Shown piece after piece: positions 8,011 through 16,966 of a stretch of DNA of 64,000 nucleotides. Where the stretch lies: assembly GCF_002216795.1 (NCBI RefSeq), contig NZ_CP022316.1, forward strand, positions 1,922,001 through 1,986,000, in the 5' to 3' direction. The notes below the pieces were generated by a model, which had not been told where the DNA came from, made no database searches, and worked only from the letters and a program-made list of their open reading frames with translations. The first letter of the stretch is position 1. Every line of letters begins with the position of its first letter. The position numbers and the translations under genes are program-made. The DNA comes from Brachybacterium avium. Lineage in GTDB: Bacteria; Actinomycetota; Actinomycetes; Actinomycetales; Dermabacteraceae.

Positions 8011-8385
8011 AGGGCCTCCTCGGTGGCCGTGGAGCGATGTCCTCTCACCCCGGCACGCGACCTCCACGAGCATCGTGGCGGGGTGGTGAAGTGTAGACCC
8101 CGGGGAGCCTCACCACCATGGGCGGGCCGGTGGATGCTGGGGACGATCCGGATGGGGAGTTCTCCCCGGGGACTTCTCCCCGGGCAGTTCACCCCATCGC
8201 TCTCCTGTTCAGGGGCCCGTAGATTTCAGGTGGCGGGTGCGGGACCCCCTCGGGGGAGGCGCCGGCACGAGGCTCACGCGGGCGGGAGCTGCGGGATCGA
8301 CGGTGGGGGCCGACGATCCGGCAGTGTCGATCGCTCCGCCCGGGGCCTCGTGTCCGGTGCGCGAGGGGCCGCACCGGGCAGCGGC
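8011..8385. other. Gene-free stretch with hairpin and direct repeat
   Basis: No convincing gene. It holds a GGGGAG-TT-CTCCCC hairpin (8154-8167) and a 14-base-period direct repeat of TTCTCCCCGGG (8160-8170 and 8174-8184). It lies between the end of the minus-strand TauE gene and the start of the minus-strand RibD-like gene, so it carries the latter's promoter region and perhaps a terminator. Nothing else stands out. Confidence 0.5.
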
Positions 8386-9123
8386 TCACAGCTGCACGAG
8401 ACCCTGGATGAGCGAGAGCGTCGCTCCGGCCATCGCGATCACGATCACCCACTGCATCGCCCGGGCGCCGTGGACCCGCCGGGCCAGCGCGTTGCCGCCG
8501 ATCAGCCCGACCACCAGCATCCCCAGCAGCAGCGCCCATCCGGTGACCGGCAGCGTGGGCAGCGCCCCCTTCGTGAGCAGGGCGGCGACACCGAGCACGG
8601 CGAAGTGCAGCTGGGCAGTGGCGGCGAAGCTCCGGTGCTCCCACTGGGTGGCCAGCGCATAGACGACCAGCCCCGGCCCACCCACACCGGCGGTCACGGT
8701 CATCAGCCCCGAGGCGAATCCGCCGCCGGCGCCCACCCAGAAGGAGTTGGGCACCTGCAGCGACCGCGACACGATGGTGAACAGCAGGCCGGCGATCACC
8801 AGCAGACTGATCGTGATGGCCAGCACCGGCGCGGGCAGCCACAGCACCAGCAGCGCCCCGGGGACGGTGCCCACGATCCCGGCCGGCACCACCTTCGCGG
8901 CGCGCCTCCAGTCCAGGTCCCGGTGGATCACGATGAGGTTCAGCAGCGCGGCCACGATCCCGCACACATTGGTGACCAGGATGCCCTCGAAGGGGCCCAG
9001 CGCCATCACCAGGAACGGTGAGGACAGCAGCGCGAAGCCCATCCCGGTGGTGCGCACCGACACCGCGCCGGCCAGGACGGCCAGCGCGGCCAGGCCCAGC
9101 GGCCACCACTGCGGATCGATCAT
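8386..9123 (-). CDS. TauE/SafE-family membrane exporter
   Basis: 245-residue protein with about eight hydrophobic segments in two repeats, typical of the TauE/SafE (DUF81) family, which moves sulfite, sulfoacetate or related anions. Motifs: GMGFALLSSPFLVMALGPFEG near 23-43 and the second-repeat GFASGLMTVTAGVGGP. ATG 9123 begins just before the first membrane segment; the upstream open extension is Arg-rich and unlikely to be translated. A second member of the family lies at 38245-39063. Confidence 0.88.
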   Translation of the reverse strand: MIDPQWWPLGLAALAVLAGAVSVRTTGMGFALLSSPFLVMALGPFEGILVTNVCGIVAALLNLIVIHRDLDWRRAAKVVPAGIVGTVPGALLVLWLPAPVLAITISLLVIAGLLFTIVSRSLQVPNSFWVGAGGGFASGLMTVTAGVGGPGLVVYALATQWEHRSFAATAQLHFAVLGVAALLTKGALPTLPVTGWALLLGMLVVGLIGGNALARRVHGARAMQWVIVIAMAGATLSLIQGLVQL

Positions 9124-9223
9124 TCGGGTCACGGTACGCGCCCGCCGCCGAGTCCGGGCCCGTCGAGCTGGCCGCCATCGAGCACCGCCCCGTACCCTGC
9201 CGTGCAGGGCTGGGAAATGTGAT

Positions 9224-9239
9224 CCCAGTGACCACTGGG
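9224..9239. promoter_or_regulatory. 16-bp palindrome between divergent genes
   Basis: CCCAGTG-AC-CACTGGG is a perfect inverted repeat in the 256-base divergent region between the TauE gene and the small membrane protein gene. Two copies of GGGTCACCA(C/G) follow at about 9237 and 9256. It looks like a repressor site, but no regulator gene is adjacent. Confidence 0.45.
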
Positions 9240-9379
9240 TCACCACCCTTTTCAGGGGGTCACCAGCGGCTCTACTCTTGTCATGAGCACAGAAGGCGCG
9301 CGTGGACTCCGCGTCTGGTCAGGCCGCGATCAGGCCTGTGCGATGTGCTCCTACCACTGTGAGAAGGAGGGACCCCCGT

Positions 9380-9562
9380 ATGGATTCGCGTCATGACGTC
9401 ACCGTCGGCCACGAACTGCAGGCCGCAGCCGAGACCGGACAGATTCCGGCGGTCCCTGCGAATGCCGACGCCGGCGAGCAGGCTCCCACCTGGCGCAGCA
9501 ACCTGGCTGTCACGCTGGCGCTCGTGCTGACCTTCGTGGTGGTCGCGCTCGTCAGCCTCTGA
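9380..9562 (+). CDS. Small single-span membrane protein, unknown function
   Basis: 60-residue protein. ATG 9380 is preceded by a strong AGAAGGAGGG ribosome site. The first 40 residues are acidic and hydrophilic; residues about 41-59 (LAVTLALVLTFVVVALVSL) form one membrane helix ending at the stop. The strong ribosome site and clean composition support a real gene. I do not recognise a family. Confidence 0.7.
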   Translation: MDSRHDVTVGHELQAAAETGQIPAVPANADAGEQAPTWRSNLAVTLALVLTFVVVALVSL

Positions 9563-9755
9563 GGCTGATCTCCTGAGGCCGGGTGGGGCTCCGGCCCCGC
9601 TCGGCTGTCCGCTCGTCGCCGCGGGGTGTCACTGCTCGCGCTGCCGCACGTCATCCCGCGTTCTCAGGAGATCCTGCTCCTGAGGAGCCGACCGGTCATG
9701 TCGGGGCCCGAACGCTGGTCTACCGCCGTCCCGATTTACGTTATACGATATTCGC

Positions 9756-9989
9756 ATGACGAGCGAGGAGCAGATCCAGCGTTGGGCCGACGAAGCCGAG
9801 GCCGGGTACGACGTCGAAGAGTTGAAGCGTCGCGGACGTGGACGTCCCGGGCGTGGCGCCGAGCCGATGCAGGTTGTGGCGGTCCGCCTGACGGCTGAGG
9901 AGGTTGCCGCCCTGGATGCGGTGGCCGAGCGGGAGCACCTGTCGCGTTCCGAGGCGATCCGGCGCGCGCTGGCTGACTTCGCCGCGTGA
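9756..9989 (+). CDS. Ribbon-helix-helix (CopG-like) antitoxin
   Basis: 77-residue protein with a basic middle (RRGRGRPGRG) and a C-terminal ribbon-helix-helix: VVAVRLTAEEVAALDAVAEREHLSRSEAIRRALADF. Such proteins are DNA-binding antitoxins. ATG 9756 lies six bases after TACGAT (9744-9749) with no Shine-Dalgarno site, so the mRNA is probably leaderless; the surrounding ACGTTATACGATATTCG is partly palindromic and could be the autoregulatory site. The stop overlaps the next gene. Confidence 0.85.
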   Translation: MTSEEQIQRWADEAEAGYDVEELKRRGRGRPGRGAEPMQVVAVRLTAEEVAALDAVAEREHLSRSEAIRRALADFAA

Positions 9990-10327
9990 AGGTTCACCAC
10001 AGCGCACTCAGACATGGGGTATTGAGCGAGGACGCGGTGCAGGCTGCCGACTGGTCGCAGTGGATCGAGCCTCTCGAGGACGACGACTGGCCCCATCGTG
10101 AGCTGCGGCTCGGCTTCGACACGCACGCTTGGCTGCTGGAGACAGTCGTGCTGATCCTCGAGGACGGTGTGGAGTCCCGATCGCAGTCATTCAGATGGCG
10201 TCCCAGTGTGGTGGCACCGCACACTCGCCTGCGACGTGGGGGCACCCAGACCCAGCCGGCCCCGGAGCCTGCTCCCACGCCCCACCTGCAACCGGGACGC
10301 GCGGGCGACGGCGTGGGCTGCGAATAG
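9986..10327 (+). CDS. Toxin-like partner of the RHH antitoxin, C-terminus probably frameshifted
   Basis: GTG 9986 overlaps the antitoxin stop (GTGA). The first 60 residues, VKVHHSALRHGV, EDAVQAADW and RELRLGFDTHAWLLETVVL, match a family of small proteins found beside ribbon-helix-helix antitoxins. After LEDGVES (about 10173) the reading frame becomes Arg/Pro-rich and lacks the usual VIHAMKAR-like end; an alternative frame gives VPIAVIQMA instead. So the tail looks disrupted, by mutation or sequencing error. Activity as a toxin is inferred, not shown. Confidence 0.55.
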   Translation: MKVHHSALRHGVLSEDAVQAADWSQWIEPLEDDDWPHRELRLGFDTHAWLLETVVLILEDGVESRSQSFRWRPSVVAPHTRLRRGGTQTQPAPEPAPTPHLQPGRAGDGVGCE

Positions 10328-10368: not shown

Positions 10369-11139
10369 ATGAGGAGCACCGACCCCGGACCGGACACCGC
10401 CAGCGGCGAGCTCTTGATCGTGGGGCACCGCGGCGCCATGACCCACGCGCTGGAGAACACGCTCGCCTCGTTCCAGCTGGCAGAGCAGATGGGCTGCCGG
10501 GAGCTCGAGCTGGATCTCCGCCGAAGCGCCGATGACCGCATCGTGGTGATCCACGATGGGACGCTGGACCGCCTTGCGGGCGACGAGGACGGTCGCGGCC
10601 TCGGCCCCGTCGCCGATATGACCCTGGAGGAGATCCAGCGGGTGCCGCTGCGGGACGGGCACCGCCTGCACACCTTCGAGGAGGTCTGCGCGGCCACCAC
10701 CGCAGGCCTGGAGGTGGAGATCAAGGACCCGGCGGTGGTGCCGCTGCTGGCCCGGTTCCTCGAGGCCCGTCCCGAGGTGGTCCGGCGCATGCGCCTGACC
10801 AGCTTCCGCGCCGAGGCTCTCGTCCAGGCGCGCGAGCTGCTGCCGCAGATCCCTCGCGGCATGATCGTGCACCGCCTGCCGGTGGGGGAGAAGCACCCCG
10901 AGGGCCTGGACGCGCTGCTCGAGCGCACCGCCGCCTCGGCACTGCTCTGCGGCTGGAAGGGCCTCACCGCCGACGCGGTCGCGGCCCAGCACGCCGCAGG
11001 CCGGCGCGTGCACGGCTGGCCGCTGCGCACCGCCGAGCAGATGGCCCACGCCATCGCGATCGGCGTGGACGGCACCACGGTGGATGACCCGCAGGCCGCC
11101 TTCGAGTGGTACCGGCAGGCGCTCGCCGCGCAGGGCTGA
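10369..11139 (+). CDS. Glycerophosphodiester phosphodiesterase family protein
   Basis: 256-residue TIM-barrel phosphodiesterase that splits glycerophosphodiesters into sn-glycerol 3-phosphate and an alcohol. Motifs: GHRGAMTHALENT (first catalytic His), ELELDLRRSAD and VIHDGTLDR (second His and metal ligands), EVEIKD, and C-terminal VHGWPLRTAEQM with GVDGTTVDDP. No signal peptide, so cytosolic. ATG 10369 has GAGAGGA eight bases upstream; ATG 10360 in the same frame is an alternative. Confidence 0.92.
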   Translation: MRSTDPGPDTASGELLIVGHRGAMTHALENTLASFQLAEQMGCRELELDLRRSADDRIVVIHDGTLDRLAGDEDGRGLGPVADMTLEEIQRVPLRDGHRLHTFEEVCAATTAGLEVEIKDPAVVPLLARFLEARPEVVRRMRLTSFRAEALVQARELLPQIPRGMIVHRLPVGEKHPEGLDALLERTAASALLCGWKGLTADAVAAQHAAGRRVHGWPLRTAEQMAHAIAIGVDGTTVDDPQAAFEWYRQALAAQG

Positions 11140-12018: not shown

Positions 12019-13329
12019 ATGACGAGCACCCGCCTGAGCCGCGCCGAGAAGGTCGATGCCGCCACCCCGGCCAGCCGGAACCGCGTGGTCGATTTCCTGC
12101 GCGCCGCCGCGATCACCGTGGTGGTGCTCGGGCACTGGACGATCATCGGGGTCGACGCGGACGGCGGCATCCAGCCCCACGGCGTGCTCGACGGTGCCGT
12201 CTGGATCCACCCGCTGACCTGGGTGTTCCAGGTGATGCCGATCTTCTTCCTGGTGGGCGGCTACTCCAACGCCCTCTCCTGGCGCTCCGCCCGCCGCAAG
12301 GACGTGGGCTACGCCCAGTGGCTGCGTGCGAGGCTGCGGCGCCTCGGGATCCCGCTGATCCCGCTGCTGCTGGCCTGGCTGGTGATCGGGGTGGTGGCCG
12401 TCGCCGCCGGGGCGCCGCACGCCACGGTGCAGCTCGCCTCCCAGATGGCGCTGATTCCCACCTGGTTCCTCGCCGCCTACCTGATGGTGATCCTGGTGGC
12501 CCCGCCCTGCCTGCTGCTGTGGGAGAGGTTCGGATGGTGGTCGATCATCGGCGTGCTCGCGCTCGCCGGGATCGTGGACGCGGTGAGTCTCGTGGCGGAT
12601 CAGCCGCTGCTGGGCTACCCGAACTATCTGCTGGTCTGGGCCGCGTTCCACCAGTTCGGGTACGCCTGGCTGGACGGCCGTCTCGCCGGTGCCGGCAGGC
12701 GTCTGCTGCTCGCCGGGGTCGGTCTTGCCGGTCTGCTGCTGCTGGTGATCGTGGGCCCGTACCCGGTCTCGATGATCACCTCCGCCGCTGATGACATCTC
12801 CAACTCGAGCCCCACCCGCATCACCATGGCGTTCCTTGGGATGATGCAGGCCGGCCTGGTGCTCTCCCTCGAGAAGCCGCTCACCGCGCTGCTGACGAGA
12901 CCCCGGCTGTGGTTCGTGACAGTGCTGGTGAACCAGCGGATCATGACCTGGTTCCTGTGGCACCTCACCGTGATGGTGGGCCTCGCGCACCTGCTGTTGG
13001 CTCTCGATGCAAGGGCGTTGCTGCCGGAGCCGCTCACCGGTGTGTGGTGGGCGACCCGGCCGCTGTGGGCTCTGGTGCTGCTGGCACTCACCGGGGCGGT
13101 GGTGCTGGTGCTGGGCCGGTTCGAGGATCCGCGGGCCGACGACAGGCCCGCACCGGCGATGTGGAAGCCGATACTTGCTGCCGTCACCGTGATCGCGGGG
13201 CTCGCCGTGATGGCCTCAGTGGGCGTAGTGGGGGAGAGCGGCGTGACCTGGTGGCCGCTACTGCCGGTGGTGGGGATGGTGGGGTTCGGGGTGGTGCGGG
13301 CTCCAGGTCGGGCGAAGCAGACGCATTAG
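12019..13329 (+). CDS. Acyltransferase-3 family membrane protein
   Basis: 436 residues with about ten hydrophobic segments. N-terminal RVVDFLRAAAITVVVLGHW carries the family Arg-x-x-Asp and His, and MPIFFLVGGYSNALSW follows at about 77-92. Such enzymes acylate sugars or cell-wall polymers at the membrane. ATG 12019 follows GAGGGGACAGG. No polysaccharide genes are next to it, so the substrate is open. It flanks the lower-GC island on the left. Confidence 0.88.
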   Translation: MTSTRLSRAEKVDAATPASRNRVVDFLRAAAITVVVLGHWTIIGVDADGGIQPHGVLDGAVWIHPLTWVFQVMPIFFLVGGYSNALSWRSARRKDVGYAQWLRARLRRLGIPLIPLLLAWLVIGVVAVAAGAPHATVQLASQMALIPTWFLAAYLMVILVAPPCLLLWERFGWWSIIGVLALAGIVDAVSLVADQPLLGYPNYLLVWAAFHQFGYAWLDGRLAGAGRRLLLAGVGLAGLLLLVIVGPYPVSMITSAADDISNSSPTRITMAFLGMMQAGLVLSLEKPLTALLTRPRLWFVTVLVNQRIMTWFLWHLTVMVGLAHLLLALDARALLPEPLTGVWWATRPLWALVLLALTGAVVLVLGRFEDPRADDRPAPAMWKPILAAVTVIAGLAVMASVGVVGESGVTWWPLLPVVGMVGFGVVRAPGRAKQTH

Positions 13330-13394: not shown

Positions 13395-16300
13395 TTATGC
13401 TGCCGCTTTGGCCTCCAGGAACAGATCGACAGGCATGGTTCGGTCCATCTTCCATACGATCTGCATAGGCCGCGAGCCCGTCGAATGTTCGAATGTTGCT
13501 GTGCCTAGGCAGGTGTAGGGCTCGGTGCCAAGGTCGCCAGTTTTCGCCCGGCGAACAAATAGCACCACGTTGCTACCTCGCTCGACGTGCGTGGTGTACC
13601 GCTGCCCGGTGGCGCTCTCGGTGCGCGTCGTGCTCTGCGATTCCCAATGGAAGTAGTCCTGGTTGATCGCGTAGTCGCGGTACATCGTGGTCGGCGAGTA
13701 GTCCGCTTCCGACTTCTTAAGCGTCACTAGCAGCGCATCTGTTCGTAGTGAAGGTAGCCATTTGACGCCCTCGCGGATCGAACCGGGGGTGCCTTTATCG
13801 AGTGTGCCAAGGCCAAGTCCTGCCAGAAGCTCTTCGCGGGAGAACTGTGCGTGCGAGCGGAGAGGCGTGGATGACAAGTTCCCACCGAGTGATCGAGGTA
13901 GTGAACGGGATGCCAGCTTGCGATAATCCAGCAAGTCGACAACCTCGGTCACCAGCTGAGGACGGGATCGAATCTGATCCAGGCCCGACCGAATGCCGAG
14001 GGTCCCCGAGGGCCAGAAGCTGAAGTAGAGCATCGCGGCGTACAGATCTGATTCGACTCCATGCGGGAGCGACGAAGTAGTGAGCAGATCACGGTAGGCG
14101 CGGATGCGGTCCGGATCGTCCACGTGAGTGAGGGCACTGACACGGCGCATGAGTGTCTCGTCGACTTCTGTGCCGACGGAGGAGCGTTCGGCAGGAAAGG
14201 CCCAGTCCACGAGGGTTGACCAGCTCGCAGCGCGCTTCTCTCCTTGGAATGTTCGGGACGACGAAGCGTAGATATCTGCGAGCGATCTTTCTGCTTCGTG
14301 AAGGTAGCTCCCCAGCGAATATTCGTCAGCGGTGACGTCCGCGGACTTGTGCTGGCGGACGTCCACCACGAGGTCCTTGGTTGATAACTTGAGTTGCTTG
14401 CGGATGTTCGTCAGAACGATGTCCTGTGACACTCGATCGAACACGATTTGAGATCCAGGAGGGAGGAATGGGAATCCGGTCCTGACGTTGCGTTCAAGCC
14501 TGTTGCGAGAGAGTCCGGTAAGGGCTCGGTACTTCAGGTCGAAGCGGAACTGTTCGTTCTGTAAGCCGACGAAGTCGAGCACCGTGAGAACGGCCTTGTC
14601 ATCAGCTCGTCGAAGGCCTCGTCCTAGCTGCTGCAGGAAAATCGTTGCGGATTGGGTGGGGCGGAGCATGAGCACGGTGTCGACCATGGGTATGTCGAGC
14701 CCTTCGTTGAAGAGATCGACAGCGAAGAGACACGTGAGCTCGCCTCGGCGCAGCTTCTCGAGCCCCTCACGGCGCTCATCACTATGGGAATCTCCGGACA
14801 GAGCAAGAGCGGGAAGTCCTGCGGCATTAAAGACCTGCGCCATGTAGCGGGCATGATCGACGCTTACGCAGAAGCCGAGTGCCCGCATTCGCGAGGGGTC
14901 AGTGACCTTGTTTTGAACGGTCGACAAGACCTTAGCTGCCCGTGCATCGTTGCCGGTGTAGACCTTGTCGAGCTCTCCGAGATCATACCGTCCACGAGAG
15001 AATCGGATGCCACTCAAATCGACCCCGTCGGCGATACCGAAGTAGTGGAATGGGACCAAGAGGTCAGCCCCGAGCGCGTCCCACAGGCGAAGCTCGCTGG
15101 CGATCCGTCCATCGAAGAAGGCGGCGGCAACGTCAACTCCGTCAGCACGCTCAGGAGTGGCGGTCAGGCCCAGAAGCTCTCGGGGCATGAAGTGGTCGAG
15201 AATGCGACGGTAGGTCGTCGCCTCAGCATGATGAAATTCGTCAATGATGACGACGTCGAAGTGGTCTTCTGCCCACCGGTGAAGTTCCTCGGCCCTTGCG
15301 ATGGACTGGATCGAGGCGAAGACGTGCTTTCCTCGAGTCGGCTTGAGCCCGCCGACGAAAAGCTCGCCGAAGCTGCCATCCTTGAGGACATCTCGGTAGG
15401 TACGCAGCGCCTGTTCGAGGATCTCCTTGCGGTGAGCGATGAAGAGCAGAGAAGGCTGATCGGCAGGGGAGGACCGCAATCGCTTGTAGTCCAGCGCTGC
15501 AATGACGGTCTTACCCGTGCCTGTGGCGGCGACGAGGAGATTGCGATGACGGTCATGGATGTCGCGCTCTGCGTCAAGGGCATCGAGCATTTCGCTCTGA
15601 TGGGGGTACGGGCGAACATCGAGCTGGCTCACGTCGAAAGTTCCGGCGCCGGTACGGCCGCCGTTTTTGGCCAGTAGCGCGTCGAGATACTCCGCGTCCT
15701 GGTCGGGATCGTAGGGAGCAAAAGCGGCATCGTCCCAGTACGTATCGAAGGTCGACTCGAACTTATCCAGCAGGCTCGGAGTGGCGTTGCGCGACAGCCG
15801 TACGTTCCACTCCAGCCCATCGACGAGCGCGGCGCGACTCATATTGGAACTGCCGACGTAGGCGGTGGTGTAGCCGCTCTTCCGATGGAACATCCATGCC
15901 TTGGCATGGAGGTGCGTGGACTGGGAGTCGTAGTTGACCCGTACCTCGGCACCAAGCGCCTTGACGAAGTGGTCGAGCGCCTTGCGGTCGGTGGCGCCGA
16001 TATACGTCGTGGTGAGCACACGGATCTTCGCACCGCGTTCCGCCGCGGCGCGAAGCGCGTCATCGAGAACACGGATGCCGCTCCACTGCACGAACGCGCA
16101 CAGTAAATCGATCTGATCCGCGCTGGCCATCTCTAGCCGAAGCTCTGAGCCCAGCTGCGGATCCAACCGGGAGTTCGTGAAGAGGGCGACGCCGCTCAAC
16201 GGTGTGGAGGGACGCGGGACCACGCTTCCGTGGGGTTCCGTCACGGAGGTGAGAAGGCGGGGGCCAGGAGCGACTGAGGCGTCTCGCTCGGCCGGAGGCA

Positions 16301-16535
16301 AACTACGCAGGATCTGATTGGCAAGATCAATCTGGCTCTCTTGCGGCGTGTCCTGCAACGCCTTGCTGACCGCACTTGAAATGTGCTGCGTCAGGACATG
16401 GGCAACATCCTCAGAGTCGACGTCAGAGGTCAGGGTAGTCAGCCCACCGGCATCAGTGTCGTCGAGAAGGCTGCTCAAACCAGCCGTGACGAGCAGTTCG
16501 TACAGCCCGGGATCAAGAGAGCGTGGTGCCGTCAC
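13395..16535 (-). CDS. PLD nuclease - DExH helicase - DUF3427 protein
   Basis: 1,046 residues in three parts. An N-terminal phospholipase-D-like nuclease domain (about 115-265) has one HxK motif (His210, Lys212 in HLHAKAW), then GSSNMSRAAL and Glu242. A superfamily 2 helicase core follows: Walker A ATGTGKT near 337-343, DEFHH at 432-436, TATPER, and QQLGRGLRR. The C-terminal 300 residues match the DUF3427 type. GTG 16535 overlaps the NUDIX stop as GTGA, so the genes are coupled. By eye the GC content is well below the neighbours. Nuclease plus helicase plus NUDIX suggests a DNA-targeting defence module; this is inference. Confidence 0.9.
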   Translation of the reverse strand: MTAPRSLDPGLYELLVTAGLSSLLDDTDAGGLTTLTSDVDSEDVAHVLTQHISSAVSKALQDTPQESQIDLANQILRSLPPAERDASVAPGPRLLTSVTEPHGSVVPRPSTPLSGVALFTNSRLDPQLGSELRLEMASADQIDLLCAFVQWSGIRVLDDALRAAAERGAKIRVLTTTYIGATDRKALDHFVKALGAEVRVNYDSQSTHLHAKAWMFHRKSGYTTAYVGSSNMSRAALVDGLEWNVRLSRNATPSLLDKFESTFDTYWDDAAFAPYDPDQDAEYLDALLAKNGGRTGAGTFDVSQLDVRPYPHQSEMLDALDAERDIHDRHRNLLVAATGTGKTVIAALDYKRLRSSPADQPSLLFIAHRKEILEQALRTYRDVLKDGSFGELFVGGLKPTRGKHVFASIQSIARAEELHRWAEDHFDVVIIDEFHHAEATTYRRILDHFMPRELLGLTATPERADGVDVAAAFFDGRIASELRLWDALGADLLVPFHYFGIADGVDLSGIRFSRGRYDLGELDKVYTGNDARAAKVLSTVQNKVTDPSRMRALGFCVSVDHARYMAQVFNAAGLPALALSGDSHSDERREGLEKLRRGELTCLFAVDLFNEGLDIPMVDTVLMLRPTQSATIFLQQLGRGLRRADDKAVLTVLDFVGLQNEQFRFDLKYRALTGLSRNRLERNVRTGFPFLPPGSQIVFDRVSQDIVLTNIRKQLKLSTKDLVVDVRQHKSADVTADEYSLGSYLHEAERSLADIYASSSRTFQGEKRAASWSTLVDWAFPAERSSVGTEVDETLMRRVSALTHVDDPDRIRAYRDLLTTSSLPHGVESDLYAAMLYFSFWPSGTLGIRSGLDQIRSRPQLVTEVVDLLDYRKLASRSLPRSLGGNLSSTPLRSHAQFSREELLAGLGLGTLDKGTPGSIREGVKWLPSLRTDALLVTLKKSEADYSPTTMYRDYAINQDYFHWESQSTTRTESATGQRYTTHVERGSNVVLFVRRAKTGDLGTEPYTCLGTATFEHSTGSRPMQIVWKMDRTMPVDLFLEAKAAA

Positions 16536-16966
16536 CGCGTGGGCCCCGGAGCAGCCCACGTTTCGGGAAGGGTCAGGATTAAGCGCTCGATGATGGGGAC
16601 GTCCCCCGGCGCCCACTCGAACTGATCCAGGTCGTTGAGATCTATCCAGGCCATGGCGTCATGATCCGTGCTCGATGTTGGCTCGGTATCAACGAGAGTT
16701 GCGGTGTAGCACGACAGCTCGATGACCACGCCGGCAACATCACTGATGCTCTTGTCGACGAACCTACCGACCGAGACATCAATGTCAAGCTCTTCGCGGA
16801 GCTCCCTCTTCAAAGCCTCTTCGGGAGTCTCTCCGGGCTCAACCTTGCCGCCAGGGAATTCCCATAAACCGCCAGCGCTACGATCGGTGTTGCGCCTCGC
16901 GGCGAAGACCGTGTTGCTCCGTCGGATGATCGCGCCGACCACACGGGTTCTCTTGCTGGTTACCAC
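16532..16966 (-). CDS. NUDIX hydrolase (MutT-like)
   Basis: 144-residue nucleotide pyrophosphatase with an intact NUDIX box, GGKVEPGETPEEALKRELRE followed by ELDI, at about 39-63. The opening RVVGAIIRRSNTVFAARR resembles MutT/CTP pyrophosphohydrolase proteins that cleave modified or non-canonical NTPs. GTG 16966 follows AGAGGAG at good spacing. It is the first gene of a two-gene operon with the PLD-helicase, so it probably serves that system (signal or modified-nucleotide removal) rather than housekeeping; this is inference. Confidence 0.92.
   Translation of the reverse strand: MVTSKRTRVVGAIIRRSNTVFAARRNTDRSAGGLWEFPGGKVEPGETPEEALKRELREELDIDVSVGRFVDKSISDVAGVVIELSCYTATLVDTEPTSSTDHDAMAWIDLNDLDQFEWAPGDVPIIERLILTLPETWAAPGPTR

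What the first reader, a model, noticed from the sequence alone, without database searches (positions are those of the whole stretch)
13395..16966. Lower-GC NUDIX + PLD-helicase-DUF3427 operon: candidate defence system
Two genes coupled by GTGA; the large protein combines a one-HxK PLD nuclease, an SF2 DExH helicase and DUF3427, all motifs intact. Composition differs from both flanks. It is not DISARM (no DrmA/DrmB) nor Mokosh (not an SF1 helicase with that partner). The role of a NUDIX enzyme beside a nuclease-helicase is not explained: it could clear a nucleotide signal or sanitise modified nucleotides.
Basis: partly seen in the sequence, partly recalled or inferred. Interest (0 to 1): 0.7.

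Follow-up and report, generated by a model that had tools for sequence, protein, structure and literature searches.

The report
Restriction enzyme with nucleotide-cleaning partner
Two overlapping genes encode a known kind of enzyme that shreds DNA carrying methylated cytosine, and a small partner that probably destroys free methylated-cytosine building blocks; the same pairing recurs from Brachybacterium to Staphylococcus aureus, which may explain how cells with such enzymes avoid cutting their own DNA.

Summary
In detail: a two-gene, 60% G+C unit with a GTGA overlap in a Brachybacterium chromosome. The large protein is not unclassified. [quoted passage not shown] The NUDIX protein is closest to the NUDIX encoded just before SauUSI itself in S. 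aureus (PDB 5X1X), then to NudG and MutT2, which hydrolyse 5-methyl-dCTP. The pairing recurs in Actinomycetota, Bacillota and Bacteroidota but is not universal: about a quarter of SauUSI homologues in the order have it, and no Streptomyces or Nonomuraea locus inspected does. The same NUDIX lineage also pairs with an unrelated HNH endonuclease, with repeated partner exchange. Two Lactobacillaceae SauUSI operons add a relative of DCTPP1, a 5-methyl-dCTPase of a different fold. Best explanation (inferred, not shown): the NUDIX removes 5-methyl- or 5-hydroxymethyl-dCTP so that host DNA does not acquire the base its own restriction enzyme attacks. The enzyme family is known and MutT-SauUSI adjacency has been noted in Streptococcus; the breadth, partner exchange and substrate hypothesis appear new.

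The parts
16532..16966 (-). NUDIX hydrolase gene (144 aa), NudG/MutT2-like, first gene of the pair
   Evidence: Pfam NUDIX E 1.5e-21; best PDB hits 5X1X and NudG 2RRK
16781..16849 (-). Nudix box G40x5Ex7RExxEE; catalytic residues intact, last Gly of the motif is Asp (variable in the family)
16532..16535 (-). GTGA overlap: TGA stop of the NUDIX gene and GTG start of the restriction gene
   Evidence: sequence
13395..16535 (-). SauUSI-family type IV restriction enzyme (1046 aa)
   Evidence: PADLOC mREase_IV 1066 bits; profile against SauUSI 7clg E 2.5e-124 over residues 31-919
16221..16535 (-). N-terminal extension (about residues 1-105, 'GLYE' segment) found in the actinobacterial branch; the SauUSI alignment starts only after it
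15711..16196 (-). PLD nuclease domain with one HxK motif (H210, K212, N231, E242)
   Evidence: structural match to PLD nucleases NucT and Zucchini
14436..15629 (-). SF2 translocase/ATPase (Walker A K342, DEFH motif II, motif VI R639/R642)
13404..13886 (-). C-terminal DUF3427 domain = SRA-fold modified-cytosine reader (pocket W926, D954, W964)
   Evidence: predicted model mb1a1daa556f4: SauUSI Z 13.7, then SUVH5/6, AbaSI, MspJI, TagI and UHRF1 SRA domains; pocket conservation
12019..13329 (+). flanking acyltransferase; boundary of a slot that holds different defence genes in different species

Best explanation
The pair is a modification-dependent restriction module. The large enzyme uses its SRA domain to recognise 5-methyl- or 5-hydroxymethyl-cytosine in incoming DNA, moves along the DNA with its SF2 motor and cuts it with PLD nuclease domains, as shown for SauUSI. 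The NUDIX hydrolase acts on the same chemical mark in the nucleotide pool: it hydrolyses 5-methyl-dCTP and/or 5-hydroxymethyl-dCTP to the monophosphate. Such nucleotides arise when methylated foreign DNA is degraded, or are made by phages. Removing them stops host polymerase from placing modified cytosine into the chromosome, where it would become a target of the cell's own restriction enzyme. A phage that builds its genome from such nucleotides would also be hindered. Shown here: gene coupling, family membership, SRA fold and pocket, recurrence of the pair, partner exchange. Inferred: the substrate of this NUDIX and the self-protection role.
For: (1) SauUSI membership and SRA reader; SauUSI biochemistry from PMC7913695 and PMC3874153. 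(2) The archetypal SauUSI in S. aureus is preceded, after 1 bp, by a NUDIX gene; its product is PDB 5X1X, the best PDB hit of the window's NUDIX. (3) Same order in Latilactobacillus, Lactiplantibacillus, Limosilactobacillus and Hymenobacter, in 15 of 64 genomes of the order, and in Agromyces. (4) Profile scores of the NUDIX group: 5X1X 119 bits, NudG 114, MutT2 99, MutT 64. NudG is listed as a 5-methyl-dCTP pyrophosphatase in PMC5389931. MutT2 also cleaves 5-methyl-dCTP, polymerase inserts 5-methyl-dCTP as well as dCTP, degraded methylated DNA is its likely source, and phage kinases make it (PMC10742078). The base-side Asp of NudG (position 118) is kept in all 44 NUDIX rows. (5) Two Lactobacillaceae SauUSI operons also carry a MazG-like gene; the one tested matches DCTPP1/RS21-C6, a 5-methyl-dCTPase of a different fold. 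(6) The NUDIX lineage swaps between SauUSI and an HNH endonuclease.
Against: No activity was measured. The NUDIX scores below the curated NudG cut-off (102 against 156 bits). MutT2 also cleaves dCTP and other dNTPs, so specificity for the modified form cannot be assumed. Most SauUSI homologues of the phylum have no such neighbour (28 of 28; Streptomyces and Nonomuraea), so the NUDIX is not required for the enzyme. The window's genome has a second MutT-like paralogue (48% identity) and also an NgoMIV-type R-M system with a C5-methyltransferase, whose expected site GCCGGC fits the S. aureus SauUSI motif; this enzyme's sequence preference must then differ, or it does not act on that mark. The HNH partner's N-terminal half matched nothing, so that it reads modified cytosine is not shown.
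Confidence: 0.55

Rival explanations
1. Direct anti-phage nucleotide arm: the NUDIX mainly destroys phage-made 5-hydroxymethyl-dCTP or 5-methyl-dCTP (or depletes dCTP), starving phages that build modified genomes, while the SauUSI homologue cuts finished modified DNA.
For: Same substrate logic as the best explanation; mobile, defence-type distribution; phage kinases make the modified precursors (PMC10742078).
Against: It would need to outpace phage synthesis; no infection data; NudG and MutT2 relatives are known as housekeeping enzymes.
Confidence: 0.2
2. General mutation-avoidance hitchhiker: an ordinary MutT-like enzyme for oxidised nucleotides (8-oxo-dGTP, 5-hydroxy-dCTP) that travels in the operon or counters oxidative stress during infection.
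For: NudG and MutT2 have broad substrate ranges; some close NUDIX relatives lie outside any restriction locus (L026, L028).
Against: Recurrent close coupling to SauUSI in three phyla; repeated switching between two unrelated nucleases; a second 5-methyl-dCTPase-type fold in two operons.
Confidence: 0.15
3. Regulatory or antitoxin-like partner: the NUDIX binds the enzyme or a nucleotide signal and controls when it is active.
For: Translational coupling; NUDIX and Macro domains occur as nucleotide-signal parts in other conflict systems (PMC7159879).
Against: Catalytic residues are conserved, and the same lineage serves two unrelated nucleases; SauUSI acts alone in vitro and in E. coli (PMC3874153); no signal synthase recognised in the pair.
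Confidence: 0.1

Closest known systems
SauUSI (S. aureus type IV restriction enzyme, PDB 7clg)
   Same: PLD-SF2-SRA order, catalytic and pocket residues, and an immediately upstream NUDIX gene
   Different: Actinobacterial branch has an extra N-terminal segment of about 105 residues; sequence preference unknown and probably not identical
NudG (Orf135) of E. coli and mycobacterial MutT2
   Same: Nudix fold and box, base-side Asp, closest characterised relatives of known substrate
   Different: Those are treated as stand-alone housekeeping enzymes; this one is operon-linked, and below the curated NudG cut-off
PADLOC PDC-S07 (candidate single-gene defence) beside RM type IV
   Same: Window NUDIX matches PDC-S07 at 151 bits; in S. 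suis PDC-S07 and RM type IV were co-localised in 23 of 23 cases (PMC12813430)
   Different: The profile also takes ordinary MutT-like paralogues; no mechanism was offered there
MutT homologues beside SauUSI homologues in Streptococcus (PMC7641849, Fig. 9 legend)
   Same: Same gene neighbourhood, noted as 'DNA repair' genes
   Different: Only a legend remark for Streptococcus; no link to 5-methyl-dCTP, S. aureus, Actinomycetota or the HNH partner
DCTPP1/RS21-C6 (5-methyl-dCTP pyrophosphatase, MazG fold)
   Same: A relative sits downstream of SauUSI in Lactobacillaceae plasmids
   Different: Unrelated fold; not seen in the window

Membership tests
SauUSI-type type IV restriction enzyme | PLD nuclease with catalytic H, K, N, E | tested here: met
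   H210, K212, N231, E242 in 22 of 22 rows
SauUSI-type type IV restriction enzyme | SF2 helicase-like motor motifs | tested here: met
   K342, D432, E433, R639, R642 in 22 of 22
SauUSI-type type IV restriction enzyme | C-terminal SRA domain | tested here: met
   SauUSI Z 13.7 (134 residues, 2.8 A), then dozens of SRA entries
SauUSI-type type IV restriction enzyme | Flipped-base pocket (Asp858, Trp868, aromatic at Tyr831) | tested here: met
   D954 and W964 invariant; W, Y or F at 926 in 22 rows
SauUSI-type type IV restriction enzyme | ATP-dependent cleavage of 5mC/5hmC DNA, Sm5CNGS preference | not testable with these tools
   needs enzymology; an NgoMIV-type R-M in the same genome suggests a different preference
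NudG (pyrimidine dNTP diphosphatase) | Nudix box with catalytic Glu/Arg residues | tested here: met
NudG (pyrimidine dNTP diphosphatase) | NCBIfam equivalog cut-off (NF007834, 156 bits) | tested here: not met
   102 bits: related, not filed as NudG
NudG (pyrimidine dNTP diphosphatase) | Hydrolysis of 5-methyl-dCTP | not testable with these tools
   inferred from kinship only
PADLOC PDC-S07 | profile match | tested here: met
   151 bits; but 129 bits for the housekeeping paralogue, so not discriminating
DISARM | DrmA and DrmB | tested here: not met
   neither gene of the pair matches DrmA or DrmB; DrmA/DrmB sit in the same slot of another species
Mokosh | MkoA/MkoB architecture | tested here: not met
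   only a partial PLD-region match to MkoB, 28 bits

The most novel reading that the evidence does not exclude
A general two-tier immune module in which one modified base is policed at two levels: an exchangeable endonuclease (SauUSI type or HNH type) cuts it in DNA, and an exchangeable nucleotide pyrophosphatase (NUDIX or DCTPP1-like MazG) removes it from the nucleotide pool, preventing both phage use and self-targeting by recycled methylated nucleotides.
Probability: 0.35. Interest if true: 0.8.

Novelty: new variant of a known kind. Interest (0 to 1): 0.58.

Why it matters
Type IV restriction enzymes have no protecting methyltransferase; how their hosts avoid acquiring the target base, for example by recycling methylated DNA they have just shredded, is rarely asked. 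A conserved partner related to 5-methyl-dCTPases, present beside SauUSI in S. aureus itself, turns this into a simple enzyme and genetics test, and could also affect how well methylated plasmids or hydroxymethylated phages get through.

Tried and rejected
DISARM and Mokosh: no matching partners. PADLOC PDC-S07 as proof of a defence role: rejected, since the profile also takes the housekeeping paralogue. HNH partner as an SRA reader: no PDB sequence match and no profile similarity of its N-terminal half to the SRA domain (hhalign); only its HNH half resembles a phosphorothioate-DNA restriction enzyme (NF045808, below cut-off); its structure was not predicted because its loci fall outside the stated rule of the folding tool. 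A strict NUDIX requirement: rejected, as 28 of 28 broader-phylum loci lack it. Incompatibility with C5-methyltransferases in the genus: 3 of 13 SauUSI-bearing genomes have one against 14 of 25 others; Fisher p 0.054 one-sided, 0.086 two-sided, no correction for kinship, so only suggestive. GCCGGC and SCNGS are not clearly avoided in the window. Viral contig scans found no relatives. Bacillota whole genomes could not be sampled. Literature was searched only in an open-access library without preprints; no paper found links SauUSI to 5-methyl-dCTP.
Full report
What is there. Two genes on the - strand: NUDIX (16966-16532, 144 aa) and a 1046-aa protein (16535-13395) that overlaps it by GTGA. The mechanical ORF of the large gene starts further upstream (16616), but relatives align from the GTG at 16535. 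Both genes have about 60% G+C between neighbours at 68-70%. The genome is a Brachybacterium: relatives of the same genus carry that name.

The large protein is a SauUSI-family enzyme. PADLOC's type IV methyl-directed enzyme model matches with 1066 bits. A profile of 22 relatives aligns to SauUSI (PDB 7clg) over SauUSI residues 31-919, E 2.5e-124. PLD residues H210, K212, N231, E242 and motor residues K342, D432, E433, R639, R642 are invariant. The C-terminal 'DUF3427' region, predicted alone (pLDDT 87), matches SauUSI (Z 13.7, 134 residues, 2.8 A) and then dozens of SRA domains: SUVH5/6, KRYPTONITE, AbaSI, ScoMcrA, MspJI, LpnPI, TagI, UHRF1. SauUSI's base-pocket residues Asp858, Trp868 and Tyr831 (PMC7913695) correspond to D954, W964 and W926; the first two are invariant and the third is always aromatic. 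SauUSI cleaves 5mC and 5hmC DNA with ATP (PMC3874153) and translocates (PMC7913695). That this homologue does the same is inference from family membership.

The NUDIX protein. Its best PDB match is 5X1X, then NudG (2RRK) and MutT2 (5zrc); with the group profile the scores are 119, 114 and 99 bits, against 64 for MutT. The S. aureus gene directly upstream of SauUSI, one base apart, encodes exactly the 5X1X sequence over the aligned region. By my recollection SauUSI is SAUSA300_2431; SAUSA300_2432 appears in the literature found here only as 'MutT/NUDIX family hydrolase'. NudG is listed as a 5-methyl-dCTP pyrophosphatase (PMC5389931). NudG's Asp118, at the position of MutT's base-contacting Asn (my recollection of that literature), is kept in all 44 NUDIX sequences examined. 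The NUDIX does not reach the curated NudG cut-off, so it is called a relative, not NudG.

How general is the pair? In the genus, 13 of 38 genomes carry the SauUSI homologue in substantially intact form, and wherever the upstream DNA is available the NUDIX is there. In 396 genomes of the order, 64 have the enzyme and at least 15 have the NUDIX 20-78 bp upstream on the same strand, in three families; Agromyces adds another. In named plasmid records the close SauUSI group shows it in Lactiplantibacillus, Latilactobacillus, Limosilactobacillus, S. aureus and Hymenobacter (Bacteroidota), but not in Fusobacterium. The S. aureus and Fusobacterium records look like chromosomal pieces filed as plasmids. 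Among 50,697 phage records only six hold such a NUDIX, and four of these also hold a SauUSI homologue on the same strand; several look like bacterial contigs. Published work agrees: a figure legend notes MutT homologues beside SauUSI homologues in Streptococcus (PMC7641849), and in S. suis PDC-S07 and RM type IV were co-localised in 23 of 23 cases (PMC12813430). But 28 of 28 broader-phylum loci and the Streptomyces and Nonomuraea loci have no NUDIX, so it is an optional partner.

A second nuclease partner. In five Brachybacterium genomes an HNH endonuclease (PF13391) lies beside the same NUDIX type, once together with SauUSI. In another genus NUDIX and HNH form a tight two-gene unit in seven loci. 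On the NUDIX tree the SauUSI- and HNH-linked copies interleave: well-supported branches force at least 6 and 3 label changes; on the enzyme tree NUDIX linkage needs 8 changes, at least 4 forced (quick method; one L. fermentum row that does have the NUDIX was labelled 'no' there because its gene is broken into pieces). Partner exchange between unrelated nucleases points to a shared function. The HNH half resembles a phosphorothioate-DNA restriction enzyme below the cut-off; its N-terminal half is unassigned. Distant HNH relatives on proteobacterial plasmids have no NUDIX.

A second nucleotide partner. In the L. plantarum and L. fermentum operons the gene after SauUSI is a MazG-like pyrophosphatase; the L. 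plantarum one matches DCTPP1/RS21-C6 (E 4.5e-7), an enzyme with 5-methyl-dCTP hydrolase activity (PMC10742078). Two unrelated folds, both with 5-methyl-dCTPase relatives, in one type of restriction operon is the strongest pointer to the substrate.

Site. Next to the acyltransferase gene the slot holds SauUSI-NUDIX (four genomes, one of them at a contig edge), HNH-NUDIX (two), or HNH plus SauUSI-NUDIX (one). In other species it holds DrmA/DrmB with a C5-methyltransferase, a C5-methyltransferase with Vsr, or a C5-methyltransferase with a GHKL ATPase. Other Brachybacterium genomes have the pair elsewhere. In G022 a NaeI-type R-M lies between the NUDIX and a remnant of the SauUSI gene, as if gaining a 5mC methyltransferase went with loss of the 5mC-cutting enzyme. 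The genus-wide trend is weak (p 0.054 one-sided), and the window's own genome keeps an NgoMIV-type R-M, so the sequence preference of this homologue must differ from SauUSI's or spare that mark.

Mechanism. Established elsewhere: 5-methyl-dCTP is incorporated as well as dCTP, probably arises from degraded methylated DNA, and phages have kinases for the monophosphate (PMC10742078). Proposed: shredding methylated DNA, or infection by a phage with modified cytosine, loads the pool with 5-methyl- or 5-hydroxymethyl-dCTP; without the NUDIX these enter the chromosome and expose it to the cell's own enzyme. The alternative weight, hindering phage synthesis, uses the same chemistry. Neither has been tested.

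Verdict. The large gene is a new member of a known family. The conserved coupling to a 5-methyl-dCTPase-like enzyme, its spread over three phyla and its exchange between nucleases make the pair a new variant of a known kind, with a cheap decisive experiment.

Noticed in passing
L032:6726-10628 (G022): NUDIX ORF joined to a PfkB-type kinase ORF, then a NaeI-type R-M (REase 8161-9087, C5-MTase 9156-10289) and a 75-aa remnant of the SauUSI C-terminus at 10401-10628: a natural loss event.
   Followed up: partly
L260:666-8000 (G003): Same acyltransferase-adjacent slot holds DrmA, DrmB and a C5-methyltransferase (DISARM-like) in a sister species.
   Followed up: partly
L025:6106-9810 (G016): Close NUDIX relative directly after a DUF6308 gene, with an IS21-like insertion (istA/istB) behind it; DUF6308 may be a further partner.
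   Followed up: no
L217:6284-6604 and L216:6421-6732: DCTPP1-like MazG pyrophosphatase downstream of SauUSI in Lactobacillaceae plasmids.
   Followed up: partly
L121:2332-3480 (Agromyces): Gene overlapping the start of the NUDIX gene has weak similarity to endonuclease NucS (E 0.00093).
   Followed up: no
L030:2224-4797 (G037): Reverse transcriptase (RVT_1) and NOV_C-domain genes near the HNH-NUDIX pair in the same slot.
   Followed up: no
L023, L195, L198, L199: Housekeeping MutT-like paralogue of Brachybacterium has an N-terminal cysteine-rich zinc-ribbon-like extension (CPRCGS..ECxxC).
   Followed up: no
L259:4164-6076 (own genome C1:1067163-1069075): NgoMIV-type R-M with C5-methyltransferase in the same genome as the 5mC-dependent enzyme: an apparent conflict worth a methylome.
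   Followed up: partly
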